DNA of 46,688 bases from Candidatus Wolfebacteria bacterium RIFOXYB1_FULL_54_12 (GCA_001793895.1 MGIT01000003.1:10600-57287), one strand, 5' to 3'. Numbered from the stretch's first letter, positions 43,956-46,647 are shown. The notes: generated by a model from the sequence alone, not told the origin. Numbers and translations: made by a program.

Positions 43956-44012
43956 TCGTACTATTTGCAGGATGGACCATTGGCATGGTAGAATGGGCTG
44001 GCAAGTAAATTT

Positions 44013-44083
44013 TGGGGGATCGTCTAAGGGTAGGACTGCAGATTTTGGATCTGCCTATCGGGGTTCGAATCCCTGTCCCCCAG
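44013..44083 (+). tRNA. tRNA-Gln(TTG)
   Basis: 71 nt. Acceptor TGGGGGA/TCCCCCA with the weak U1-A72 pair and discriminator G typical of glutamine; anticodon stem GCAGA/TCTGC, loop TTTTGGA (TTG). Its 3' end recurs at 46065. Confidence 0.94.
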
Positions 44084-44094
44084 CCCCGTAAAAT
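44064..44094. repeat. Putative left attachment-like repeat (tRNA-Gln 3' end)
   Basis: Runs from the T-loop to 11 nt past the tRNA. Matches 46065-46095 in the same orientation at 27 of 31 positions by hand. Confidence 0.65.
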
Positions 44095-44134
44095 AACACA
44101 AATAAACCGCCTTTGGGCGGTTTATTTGTGTTAT
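44093..44134 (+). terminator. Terminator of tRNA-Gln
   Basis: ATAACACAAATAAACCGCC and its complement, 19-bp arms, loop TTTG. Confidence 0.85.
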
Positions 44135-44155
44135 CACAGGGCAAGCCATGAGGAT

Positions 44156-44208
44156 TGTCACGTGGATATTTTACGAGGGCCACGTGACAAATTTTTTCAC
44201 AAATTTGT
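44156..44208. other. Two adjacent hairpins at the islet edge
   Basis: TGTCACGTGG/CCACGTGACA (44156-44189) and ACAAATTT/AAATTTGT (44187-44208). Confidence 0.5.
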
Positions 44209-44265
44209 TTTACGTGGCGTGTTTATAAATTAAAGGTACCTGACCCCATTAAGACCATTAAGACA

Positions 44266-44442
44266 TTAATACACCTTAGTGCCCATTAAAAAATGCGATG
44301 CGCCATCCGCGAATGCTAACGTTGCTGCCTTTATATTCAGACCATCATCCCCTTTAAAAATAAATGGACACTCAAAGTAATCTACTTCCCATACTATAAG
44401 ATTTTCGAATTCTTTTTTTCTTATTTCTTTTTTATTTGCCAT
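44266..44442 (-). CDS. 58-aa protein of unknown function
   Basis: MANKKEIRKKEFENLIVWEV is the basic N-terminus; it continues with DYFECPFIFKGDDG and ends HFLMGTKVY. No recognised family; a strand-rich core is likely. It starts 8 nt after the zinc-ribbon gene on the same strand, so it is the last gene of a three-gene run. Codon use is AT-rich like its two neighbours and unlike the rest of the window, which supports common transfer. Confidence 0.6.
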   Translation of the reverse strand: MANKKEIRKKEFENLIVWEVDYFECPFIFKGDDGLNIKAATLAFADGASHFLMGTKVY

Positions 44443-44450
44443 ATCATATA

Positions 44451-44648
44451 TTATTTGTGAATCAATTTGTAATCCCCTTCGTTCCCACCAACCCGTACAT
44501 AATAATCACACCCATCAACATAAATCGCCTTACATTTACATGCAGTAAGTTTCTTTTGGGTATTCCAATAAATCTCATCTCCACAATGAGCACATTTGTA
44601 GTGCGCCTCCTTTTTAGTTTTAGTGCTGTGTTCTTTTGGCATAACCAT
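44451..44648 (-). CDS. Small zinc-ribbon protein
   Basis: 65 aa (or 63 from Met3). CAHC (19-22) and CKC (37-39) separated by 14 residues form a zinc ribbon; the C-terminus VDGCDYYVRVGGNEGDYKL is a beta-rich tail. Starts 2 nt after the ATPase stop. Possible nucleic-acid binding or a redox role; a regulator of the islet is one option. Confidence 0.7.
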   Translation of the reverse strand: MVMPKEHSTKTKKEAHYKCAHCGDEIYWNTQKKLTACKCKAIYVDGCDYYVRVGGNEGDYKLIHK

Positions 44649-44650
44649 AC

Positions 44651-45934
44651 TTATTCTCTATTTGATTCAATAAGCCATTCCCATAGTGGTTTTATCCGTA
44701 TAATCATCCCGTCCTTCTCAACTTCACGTTTCTCATCCCACGTCAGTATCGTTAGCTTTTTAGTATTCAATTCGTGACCCGCCTCAACCAATGCCTTCAC
44801 TTCGCGATCTTCCGTATCCTTATTTCTTGTTCCGTAACATGCCTGTATCAGTTCTTTTACCTCAATACCCTCCTTAACAACAAAATCGACTTCGCGATCA
44901 TTTCGCGTCTTATAATAAAACAGTTCATGATTAGGCTTGACTCCACGCTTCACAAGCTCGGTAAAGACCAAATTCTCCATAAGTTTGCCCTTATCCGGAG
45001 AATGCTGAATTGCTTTTGCGCTTATAAATCCATTGTCGATGGCATATACTTTTTTGGGAGATTTTATTCTTTGTACTGCCTTTGTGGAATAGCGAAGCAA
45101 CGAAAATATCAAGTACGCCTCTTCTAAATATTTTGTATATTTCTCCGTTGTTGAAATGCTTTTTAGTCCGAGTATATCCTGCACTTTTCGCAAGCTATAC
45201 AAACCTGCAAAATTATTTACCATATACAACCCCAAATTCCCTATTTGCGTTGAAAATTTGACCCTATGTCTTTTTACTACATCTTTAAAAATAAGCGAGT
45301 CAAAAAGTATCCCCAGGTAATCGCGATGATCAAGGCCACTAACCACTACTTCCGGGAATCCTCCACTTATCAGGTATTCTTCCATGAGACTTAGGAGTTC
45401 GCCGTGTTTCTCCGGCAAAGAACCATATTCGGAGTCTATATTAAATTTTTTAGCCTTCAAAAACTCGTTGAAATCAAACGGCAATATTTCTATGGGGATA
45501 TGCCTACCCGTAAGCGCAGTCGCAAGCTCCTTTGAGAGCATGTGAGCATTCGATCCGGTCAATATTAAGTTATAACCTTCTCTATGTAGTCGATTCGCAA
45601 AAAGTTCCCAATTCGGCAAATTTTGAATTTCATCAAATAAAATATTTTTCACATCACCATACACGGAATGCAATTTCCCCATAAGCTCATCTGTTACTAT
45701 CCCGCCAACGCTCGAGAGTACTTCATCATCAAAGTTGAAGTACATAAATGGGCGCCCTTTTAAAAGCATGAGGGCGAATATTGATTTCCCTGCCCGCCTT
45801 GGCCCCAAAATTACTTTGATTAAATTGGAGTCCAACCATTTCTTCCCGAAATCATCCTTTGTCCGCGGGATATATTCGAGTGCCAGAAATCGCTCTTTTT
45901 CTAATTTTTGCTTTAATATTACGTCTTTAAGCAT
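44651..45934 (-). CDS. AAA ATPase with DUF4143 domain
   Basis: 427 aa. Walker A GPRRAGKS (44-51), Walker B ILFDEIQNL (98-106), sensor-like TGSNAHML (125-132), GRHIPIEILPFDFNEFL, then a winged-helix-like middle (about 225-275) and a DUF4143-like C-terminus with YYKTRNDREVDFVVKEG...VKELIQ (about 345-372), reminiscent of PD-(D/E)xK nucleases. Proteins of this class are common, often mobile, with roles suggested in defence or gene transfer but not settled. First gene of an AT-rich operon, with three TTGACCAGTA sites upstream. Confidence 0.88.
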   Translation of the reverse strand: MLKDVILKQKLEKERFLALEYIPRTKDDFGKKWLDSNLIKVILGPRRAGKSIFALMLLKGRPFMYFNFDDEVLSSVGGIVTDELMGKLHSVYGDVKNILFDEIQNLPNWELFANRLHREGYNLILTGSNAHMLSKELATALTGRHIPIEILPFDFNEFLKAKKFNIDSEYGSLPEKHGELLSLMEEYLISGGFPEVVVSGLDHRDYLGILFDSLIFKDVVKRHRVKFSTQIGNLGLYMVNNFAGLYSLRKVQDILGLKSISTTEKYTKYLEEAYLIFSLLRYSTKAVQRIKSPKKVYAIDNGFISAKAIQHSPDKGKLMENLVFTELVKRGVKPNHELFYYKTRNDREVDFVVKEGIEVKELIQACYGTRNKDTEDREVKALVEAGHELNTKKLTILTWDEKREVEKDGMIIRIKPLWEWLIESNRE

Positions 45935-45947
45935 ATATTCTTATATC

Positions 45948-45998
45948 TACTGGTCAAATTAATCATATTTTGACCAGTACAGTTAGTATACTGGTCAA
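45948..45998 (-). promoter_or_regulatory. Triple TTGACCAGTA operator-like site
   Basis: TTGACCAGTA copies at 45948-45957 and 45989-45998 (minus strand) and 45970-45979 (plus strand). The last two form an inverted repeat with a 9-bp spacer. First copy lies 13 nt before the ATPase ATG. Confidence 0.65.
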
Positions 45999-46064
45999 GA
46001 TAAGCAAAAGCAAGCAATTTGGACGTAGTTCCATTATCAAAGATAGGTACTAGGCCGGGATGAG

Positions 46065-46095
46065 TTCAAATCCCTACCCCCCTGCCCCGTAAAAT
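46065..46095. repeat. Putative right attachment-like repeat (degenerate tRNA-Gln 3' end)
   Basis: TTCAAATCCCTACCCCCCTG followed by CCCCGTAAAAT; four differences from 44064-44094. Marks the right edge of the islet. Confidence 0.65.
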
Positions 46096-46176: not shown

Positions 46177-46647
46177 ATGGCAAACAAGGAATCTCTTCTC
46201 GCATACCTGAAGTCGCAAAATCTCATGTCGCTTGCCACCTATGGCGAGGCCCCTGCAAACTGCGCCGTCTACTTTGCCGTTGACGGGGATTTTAGTTTTT
46301 ATTTTATCAGCGAACCCGATAGCGAACACTGCACCAATATCGCAAAAAATCCCCGCGTTGCCTGCGTCATCGCCGATTCGCATCAGGTCGTAAGCACAAA
46401 AAAGATCGGCGCACAAATAAAAGGGACTGTGGAGGACGTCACCATGCTTGAACAATTCGATGCGATCATTAATTTGTGGAACTCTACGAATCCGGGTATG
46501 GAGGCGATCATCAGCATTAATAACTTCCGCAATAAGATCCTTAAATCACGCGCGTACAAGATACGCCCCACGACGATCAAGTTCTTTAACGAAGAGCTGT
46601 ATGGCGAAGAAGGGTTTGAACTATTCCCATTCGAGCAACCCAAATAG
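46177..46647 (+). CDS. Pyridoxamine 5'-phosphate oxidase-like flavin-binding protein
   Basis: 156 aa. The split-barrel FMN-binding fold is visible: LMSLATYGEAPANCAVYFAV (first strands), FYFISEPDSEHCTNIAKNPRVACVI and the AQIKGTVEDV strand. Lacks the C-terminal PNPOx dimerisation part, as in the wide family of small split-barrel proteins that bind FMN, F420 or haem; exact activity open. The ATG at 46177 is preferred over 46132 because the -10 box lies between them. Terminator follows. Confidence 0.85.
   Translation: MANKESLLAYLKSQNLMSLATYGEAPANCAVYFAVDGDFSFYFISEPDSEHCTNIAKNPRVACVIADSHQVVSTKKIGAQIKGTVEDVTMLEQFDAIINLWNSTNPGMEAIISINNFRNKILKSRAYKIRPTTIKFFNEELYGEEGFELFPFEQPK

What the first reader, a model, noticed from the sequence alone, without database searches (positions are those of the whole stretch)
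44013..46095. tRNA-Gln islet: three AT-rich genes between a tRNA and a copy of its 3' end
A direct repeat of the tRNA-Gln 3' end plus 11 nt (44064-44094 and 46065-46095, four differences) bounds about 2 kb holding an AAA/DUF4143 ATPase, a zinc ribbon and a 58-aa unknown protein in one operon. This is the geometry of tRNA-targeted integration, but no integrase is present, so either it was lost, works in trans, or the islet is a satellite. The fixed three-gene set next to an operator-like array could be a small defence or maintenance module.
Basis: partly seen in the sequence, partly recalled or inferred. Interest (0 to 1): 0.72.

Follow-up and report, generated by a model that had tools for sequence, protein, structure and literature searches.

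The report
Self-regulated defence-candidate gene beside tRNA-Gln
A small foreign DNA block beside a tRNA gene carries a widespread but untested 'defence' ATPase, and comparing its relatives shows that this ATPase probably switches off its own gene through a three-part DNA switch whose sequence changes together with two amino acids of the protein, so an unstudied gene family becomes testable.

Summary
A 31-nt repeat (27/31 identical) of the tRNA-Gln 3' end brackets an AT-rich (38% versus 48% GC) three-gene operon. The block is foreign to the locus. A congener (G003) lacks it between the same neighbours. A second congener (G002) has a Fic (PADLOC SoFic) gene there, ended by a related tRNA-3'-end copy. 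No integrase accompanies it, and the junctions are not those of one clean integration. The 'fixed three-gene set' is wrong: the 58-aa gene occurs in 1 of 380 genomes and the zinc ribbon beside 7-8 of 80 ATPase relatives.

The ATPase (AAA_14/DUF4143) is a PADLOC PDC-S01 defence candidate. Its 'operator-like array' is a family trait. Close homologues from CPR to an archaeon carry three 10-nt half-sites at fixed spacing (10-9-10-12-10) over a promoter. Half-site sequences differ between loci but match within each locus. The variable bases track residues 260/261 at the start of the predicted recognition helix, with parallel switches on a tree built without that region. I conclude that the ATPase is an autoregulated AAA+/winged-helix/restriction-endonuclease-fold protein, horizontally acquired into a tRNA-Gln hot spot. 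Autoregulation is strongly supported; defence function and the route of insertion are inferred.

The parts
44012..44086 (+). tRNA-Gln (TTG); anticodon arm and T-loop differ from the tRNA-Gln(TTG) of congeners G002 and G003
   Evidence: ARAGORN, Rfam, comparison
44064..44094 (+). left copy of the 31-nt repeat (tRNA 3' end + CCCCGTAAAAT)
44094..44133 (+). perfect hairpin 3' of the tRNA (TAACACAAATAAACCGCC TTTG GGCGGTTTATTTGTGTTA), part of a post-tRNA-Gln module also seen in congeners
   Evidence: sequence; comparison
44235..44247 (+). GGTACCTGACCCC dispersed short repeat; also present between tRNA-Gln and PNPOx in G003 and G002
44266..44442 (-). 58-aa orphan ORF, third gene of the operon
   Evidence: no relative in 379 other genomes of the phylum
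44451..44648 (-). 65-aa zinc ribbon, DUF7695 (cysteine-rich), second gene of the operon
   Evidence: Pfam PF24749 E=1.8e-9; beside ATPase homologues in 7-8 of 80 loci
44651..45934 (-). 427-aa AAA_14-DUF4143 ATPase (PADLOC PDC-S01): AAA+ domain, winged helix, restriction-endonuclease-fold C-terminus
45119..45157 (-). codons of predicted recognition helix (residues 260-272); residues 260/261 co-vary with operator bases
45948..45957 (-). operator half-site C (TTGACCAGTA)
45970..45979 (-). operator half-site B (TACTGGTCAA)
45989..45998 (-). operator half-site A (TTGACCAGTA), overlaps the -10 box
45985..45990 (-). -10 box TATACT of the operon promoter
   Evidence: position conserved in 60 of 67 homologues
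46008..46013 (-). -35 box TTGCTT, 17-nt spacer (weak in the window; TTG at this position in 50 of 67 homologues)
   Evidence: not picked by the generic scan
46046..46095 (+). right junction: GGTACTAG plus degenerate copy of tRNA-Gln T-arm/acceptor plus CCCCGTAAAAT; a homologous junction ends the Fic cassette in G002
46177..46647 (+). PNPOx-family flanking gene, syntenic in all four genus genomes

Best explanation
The islet is a horizontally acquired cassette whose working part is a PDC-S01 ATPase gene with its own switch. SHOWN: the block is absent from a congener with the same flanks; tRNA-Gln to PNPOx is a variable site with exchangeable single-gene 'defence candidate' cargo (PDC-S01 here, SoFic in G002); and close homologues of the ATPase carry a promoter overlapped by three half-sites at fixed spacing that co-vary with one another and with residues 260/261 of the protein. 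INFERRED: the ATPase binds its own operator through the winged helix. A sits on the -10 box and B-C on the transcription start and leader, so binding shuts off the operon and keeps the protein scarce. When repression is relieved (for example by nucleotide- or phage-triggered remodelling of the AAA+ part), the STAND/ORC-like ATPase with its endonuclease-fold domain acts, most likely in anti-phage defence. The zinc ribbon is an occasional accessory and the 58-aa ORF a passenger. The cassette entered by recombination at the tRNA-Gln 3' end without an integrase of its own.
For: Empty site: G003 runs coil gene - tRNA-Gln - about 225 bp - PNPOx at 82-91% DNA identity to the window, without the block. 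Foreign: 38% versus 48% GC; closest ATPases at 71-79% identity lie in unrelated CPR groups, while 50 of 61 related genomes have no match to it at all. Site reuse: G002 has a Fic gene (SoFic, E=1.9e-46) ended by a tRNA-3'-end copy with the same GGTACTAG motif, alignment above 2000 of 2000 shuffles; no other genome of 244 in the order has this junction at a T-arm. Operator: with the register set only by invariant positions, B and C agree at 109 of 136 variable positions against 53.7 +/- 5.8 shuffled, and A-B at 78 against 50.5 +/- 5.4; 0 of 5000 shuffles reach either. Promoter: -10 at fixed offset in 60 of 67, controls 4-8 of 67. Code: S261 and I260 lead the weighted, blind scan of columns against operator bases 4 and 3 and sit at the N-terminus of the predicted recognition helix H260-272 (model pLDDT 88.6). 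On a tree built without residues 235-280, KSVHT goes with TGTGCA in two separate clades, and KSATT to KSTTT goes with TGTCC to TGACC twice. Defence setting: PADLOC PDC-S01 E=8.1e-99; homologues beside HsdM, between hsdR and a DNA methyltransferase gene on a Treponema plasmid, and between cas3 and cas4 on an Arcobacter plasmid.
Against: No binding, repression or anti-phage experiment was found; [quoted passage not shown] The endonuclease-fold domain lacks the usual lysine (invariant D350 and Q364, then Q-x-C/S/T), so cleavage is doubtful. In several homologues half-site A does not match B/C. Operator classes follow the protein tree, so much of the raw residue association is shared ancestry; in the unweighted one-per-cluster test 260/261 are high but not always first. 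The window's own -35 (TTGCTT) is weak. The left junction does not fit one clean tRNA integration.
Confidence: 0.72

Rival explanations
1. A tRNA-Gln-targeted non-autonomous integrative element or satellite: a helper tyrosine recombinase acting in trans integrates circular cassettes at the tRNA 3' end, and the repeats are attL and attR.
For: tRNA-3'-end copies end two different cargos at the same site, with shared GGTACTAG sequence on the cargo side; empty site in G003; in G002 the order tRNA - cargo - displaced 3' end - native hairpin and GGTACCTGACCCC repeat is what tRNA integration gives.
Against: No integrase in the block; only one Xer-type recombinase in G000, G001 and G003, and the extra one in G002 is not at a tRNA. 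In the window the native tRNA-downstream module stays left of the cargo. Repeats already differ at 4 of 31. No viral-contig relative.
Confidence: 0.3
2. The tRNA-3'-end copy has nothing to do with mobility: CPR tRNAs often carry a copy of their own 3' end about 100-200 nt downstream, and the cargo entered that module by transformation and homologous or illegitimate recombination between dispersed repeats.
For: 7-8 of 77 tRNAs in held loci have a copy of their own last 20 nt 96-202 nt downstream, 0 upstream, without cargo. GCCCCGTAAAAT and GGTACCTGACCCC are dispersed repeats at this locus. The window tRNA-Gln has a replaced anticodon arm relative to congeners, suggesting recombination through the tRNA.
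Against: The G000 and G002 junctions share sequence beyond the tRNA part although their cargos are unrelated; none of the short modules listed shows GGTACTAG.
Confidence: 0.4
3. A maintenance module: the ATPase is an ORC/partition-like protein and the half-site array is a replication or segregation site.
For: The AAA+ and winged-helix part resembles archaeal Orc2 and SSO1545 (Z 11.9 and 16.1) and the array lies next to the gene; distant homologues occur on plasmids.
Against: The array sits on a promoter in 60 of 67 homologues; there are only three half-sites and only one further perfect half-site elsewhere in the genome; the gene lies on a 160-kb contig among core genes (dnaX, tRNAs), with no partner ParA/Rep seen beside it.
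Confidence: 0.1
4. Ordinary vertically inherited genes that happen to lie beside a tRNA-like fragment.
For: Flanking genes are syntenic in the genus.
Against: None of the three congeners has the genes at this site; composition and relatives are foreign.
Confidence: 0.02

Closest known systems
PDC-S01 (PADLOC phage defence candidate; AAA_14-DUF4143 ATPases)
   Same: Whole-length match E=8.1e-99; ATPase plus PD-(D/E)XK-superfamily domain as described for PDC-S01 (PMC12988326); homologues embedded in type I RM and CRISPR loci.
   Different: I found no published description of the co-varying three-half-site operator or of the recognition-helix code; this subfamily lacks the usual catalytic lysine.
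STAND/ORC-like archaeal ATPases (SSO1545 2fna, PABY2304 2qen, Orc2 1w5t) and NLR/CED-4
   Same: AAA+ plus winged-helix architecture, Z 16.4-11.9 over 254-268 residues.
   Different: 10-20% identity; here an endonuclease-fold domain follows the winged helix.
Can2/Card1, McrC and other restriction-endonuclease-fold nucleases
   Same: C-terminal domain fold, Can2 Z 10.2 over 124 residues, McrC Z 7.8, EcoT38I 7.3.
   Different: No CARF sensor, no separate McrB; the ExK lysine is missing.
Non-autonomous tRNA-associated cargo islands such as tycheposons (from memory; the term is used in PMC10872708)
   Same: Cargo between a tRNA and a copy of its 3' end, variable between close relatives.
   Different: About 2 kb, no integrase or replication gene, and an untidy left junction.

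Membership tests
PDC-S01 single-gene defence candidate | Full-length match to a PDC-S01 model (AAA_14 + DUF4143) | tested here: met
   PDLC04787 E=8.1e-99, residues 20-424 of 427; Pfam AAA_14 and DUF4143 above cut-off
PDC-S01 single-gene defence candidate | PD-(D/E)XK-superfamily fold after the ATPase | tested here: met
   C-terminal model pLDDT 87.4; best matches are endonuclease-fold nucleases, Z up to 10.2
PDC-S01 single-gene defence candidate | Anti-phage activity | not testable with these tools
   Literature: validation pending for most PDCs (PMC12988326)
Active PD-(D/E)XK nuclease | D and (E/Q)-x-K catalytic residues | tested here: not met
   Invariant E320, D350 and Q364, but Q-x-C/S/T and the like in place of Q-x-K in the aligned homologues
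tRNA-targeted integrative element | Direct repeat of the tRNA 3' end at both ends | tested here: met
   27 of 31 identical
tRNA-targeted integrative element | Site-specific integrase in the element | tested here: not met
   None in the block; one chromosomal Xer-type tyrosine recombinase only; serine recombinases were not searched genome-wide
tRNA-targeted integrative element | Precise empty site in a relative | tested here: inconclusive
   G003 lacks the block between the same flanks, but the junctions are not clean
Phage satellite | Phage-related genes or relatives in viral sequence | tested here: not met
   No viral-contig relative of any of the three proteins; ATPase in phage records only below 60% identity
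Autoregulated repressor-type operon | Operator over own promoter that co-varies with the protein's recognition helix | tested here: met
   binding itself not tested

The most novel reading that the evidence does not exclude
PDC-S01 ATPases form a large family of self-recognising switches: each carries a private three-half-site operator read by residues 260/261, and these addresses diversify so that co-resident or incoming family members do not cross-repress. New alleles arrive partly by recombination inside the operator, leaving chimeric operators whose A half-site belongs to another class. This would be an allelic-exclusion or superinfection-like layer in one of the commonest prokaryotic 'defence' families.
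Probability: 0.3. Interest if true: 0.75.

Novelty: new member of a known kind. Interest (0 to 1): 0.52.

Why it matters
PDC-S01 is counted as the fourth most common defence system of prokaryotes (9,986 archaeal and 29,494 bacterial instances, PMC12988326), yet most such candidates are unvalidated and I found only one paper in the held library that names DUF4143. The operator and the 260/261 code give this family a molecular handle: a predicted DNA ligand, a reporter and a specificity swap. They also suggest that the gene is normally kept off, so over-expression or induction, rather than simple cloning under its own promoter, may be needed to see its effect. The tRNA-Gln site shows how reduced CPR genomes swap single-gene defence candidates.

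Tried and rejected
Three-gene module: no other locus has all three genes. Phage or satellite origin: viral-contig searches with all three proteins and with the operator pattern found nothing. The idea that the right copy is a whole degenerate tRNA with D-arm: the upstream half does not align better than shuffles. tRNA-end copies flanking other ATPase homologues: only one free T-arm within 1.5 kb of 80 loci; same-strand tRNA genes are, however, over-represented just upstream (8 of 80 loci within about 700 bp), but in the window the tRNA lies at the other end of the operon. Weak XerC/integrase matches of the ATPase fall on its HTH (residues 247-271) and are not taken as homology. Generic promoter scan: 7 found against 7.3 expected, so uninformative; the promoter claim rests on conservation. 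The operator is not shared by a regulon: four perfect TACTGGTCAA in the genome, three of them in this array. For more distant DUF4143 proteins, upstream palindromes beat shuffles in only some cases, so I limit the strict A-9-B-12-C claim to this subfamily.

Full report
WHAT IS THERE. The window belongs to an 825-kb genome in six contigs, apparently a CPR bacterium because its closest ATPase relatives are CPR MAGs and its relatives have genomes of 0.4-1.4 Mb (inference). tRNA-Gln(TTG) at 44012-44086 is followed on the plus strand by CCCCGTAAAAT, a perfect hairpin, and the short dispersed repeat GGTACCTGACCCC. Then comes a minus-strand operon: ATPase 45934-44651, zinc ribbon 44648-44451 and a 58-aa ORF 44442-44266. 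Beyond the ATPase start are three half-sites and, at 46046-46095, GGTACTAG plus a degenerate tRNA-Gln T-arm/acceptor plus CCCCGTAAAAT. The repeat is not chance (E = 7.5e-5 genome-wide; 0 of 2000 shuffles).

THE BLOCK IS AN ACQUISITION. All three congeners keep dnaX - p73 - coiled-coil gene - tRNA-Gln(TTG) - PNPOx. In G003 the tRNA and PNPOx are about 225 bp apart and DNA identity on the two sides is 82% and 91%. In G002 a Fic gene (SoFic) fills the site and ends in CAATGGGTACTAGTCCAAGACGGGTCCGGATTCCTGCCCCCCCAGC. This aligns with the window junction far above shuffles, including GGTACTAG outside the tRNA part. Among 244 genomes of the order only G000 and G002 have that motif followed by a T-arm. 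In G002 the native hairpin and GGTACCTGACCCC follow the displaced tRNA end, as tRNA integration would give. In the window they stay on the tRNA side and the cargo lies beyond them, and the window's tRNA-Gln has a different anticodon arm from that of G002 and G003. The history is therefore recombination at this tRNA, but not a single clean integration, and no integrase is on hand.

THE ATPASE. It is AAA_14 + DUF4143, PADLOC PDC-S01. A model from 34 homologues (pLDDT 88.6, pTM 0.89) shows an AAA+ domain, a helix-turn-helix (H248-255, H260-272) with wing, and a C-terminal domain. The first two match archaeal STAND/ORC-type ATPases and CED-4/NLR proteins. The last, folded alone, matches restriction-endonuclease-fold nucleases, Can2 best. 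Invariant E320, D350 and Q364 are in place, but the usual lysine is not.

THE OPERATOR. One scan of 84,980 species genomes returned the 80 best loci, from many CPR groups, Elusimicrobia, Spirochaetota, Planctomycetota, Nitrospirota, Myxococcota and a Thermoplasmata archaeon. Aligned at the start codon, almost all show A(10)-9-B(10)-12-C(10) with B inverted. The half-site is TTGnnnAnTA; the inner bases differ between loci but agree within a locus: B-C 109/136 against 53.7 +/- 5.8, A-B 78/136 against 50.5 +/- 5.4, none of 5000 shuffles as high, one locus per 80%-identity protein cluster, register set only by invariant positions. A caveat: 13% of shuffled upstream regions reach the lowest score admitted there, but most real loci score well above it. 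A -10 box lies at a fixed place on the edge of A in 60 of 67 loci (controls 4-8) and TTG stands at -35 in 50 of 67. This is the layout of self-repression.

THE CODE. In a blind scan of alignment columns with down-weighting of close relatives, S261 and I260 lead for operator bases 4 and 3; both are the first residues of the predicted recognition helix. KS-VH-T goes with TGTGCA, KS-DV/QV-T with TGCAT or close variants, KS-AS/AT-T with TGTCCA, KS-IS/VA/IT/TT-T with TGACCA, SS-VA-T with TGTTCA. On a maximum-likelihood tree made without residues 235-280 the 10 operator classes need 17 changes. TGC with H261 appears in two separate supported clades, and ACC with T260 arises at two places inside the TCC clade (L100/L101 and L136/L139). 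In the unweighted one-per-cluster test 260/261 rank high but not always first, so the parallel switches are the stronger evidence. Some loci have A of one class and B/C of another (L080, L085, L106, L112), as if alleles had been joined inside the operator.

NEIGHBOURS. The zinc ribbon is beside 7-8 of 80 ATPase homologues. An unassigned, possibly exonuclease-like protein is beside 7, another DUF4143-type ATPase near 9, and type I RM genes in several. On plasmids, distant relatives lie between hsdR and a DNA methyltransferase gene and between cas3 and cas4. The 58-aa protein was found only in this genome.

MECHANISM, with status. Acquisition: shown. Autoregulation through the winged helix: strongly supported by covariation and promoter overlap, binding not shown. 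Defence: inferred from PADLOC assignment and neighbourhood; literature calls most such candidates unvalidated (PMC12988326). Mode of entry: undecided between helper-driven tRNA integration and repeat-mediated recombination.

VERDICT. The islet is a member of a known kind, a swapped-in single-gene defence candidate at a tRNA. The surprise is the readable, co-evolving operator of its ATPase family.

Noticed in passing
L120 2358-2620, L120 minus-strand tRNA-Glu and tRNA-Val, L030 1501-1760, L051, L107 tRNA-Gly, L079 tRNA-His: CPR tRNA genes are often followed 96-202 nt downstream by a copy of their own 3' end, mostly with an inverted T-arm in between (7-8 of 77 tRNAs, 0 upstream). No Rfam family other than tRNA matches. 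The copy is of the local tRNA even when the spacer is the same repeat.
   Followed up: partly
L109 4560-5000: tRNA-His followed by three tandem units of about 60-80 nt, each ending in a copy of the tRNA acceptor end (ACACCCCA).
   Followed up: no
L058 5279-6690 (G002): Fic (SoFic) cassette at the same tRNA-Gln, with a further T-arm-like fragment about 100 nt after the tRNA.
   Followed up: partly
window 44235-44247; G000 contig C1 near 84456, 200590, 204710, 205438: GGTACCTGACCCC is a dispersed short repeat (5 in G000, none when read backwards), resembling the GGGGTCAGGTACC-type REP sequences I recall from RAYT transposases.
   Followed up: no
window 44012-44086: tRNA-Gln(TTG) has a different anticodon arm and T-loop from the same-locus tRNA of congeners G002 and G003, which share theirs; suggests replacement of much of the 3' part of the gene.
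   Followed up: partly
L106, L112, L080, L085, L095 upstream of the ATPase: Chimeric operators: half-site A of one class, B and C of another.
   Followed up: partly
L061 2301-2780 and further loci: A conserved 152-160 aa protein (IFVDCEGHGPAP..., possibly DEDD-exonuclease-like, no Pfam hit) directly downstream of the ATPase in 7 loci.
   Followed up: no
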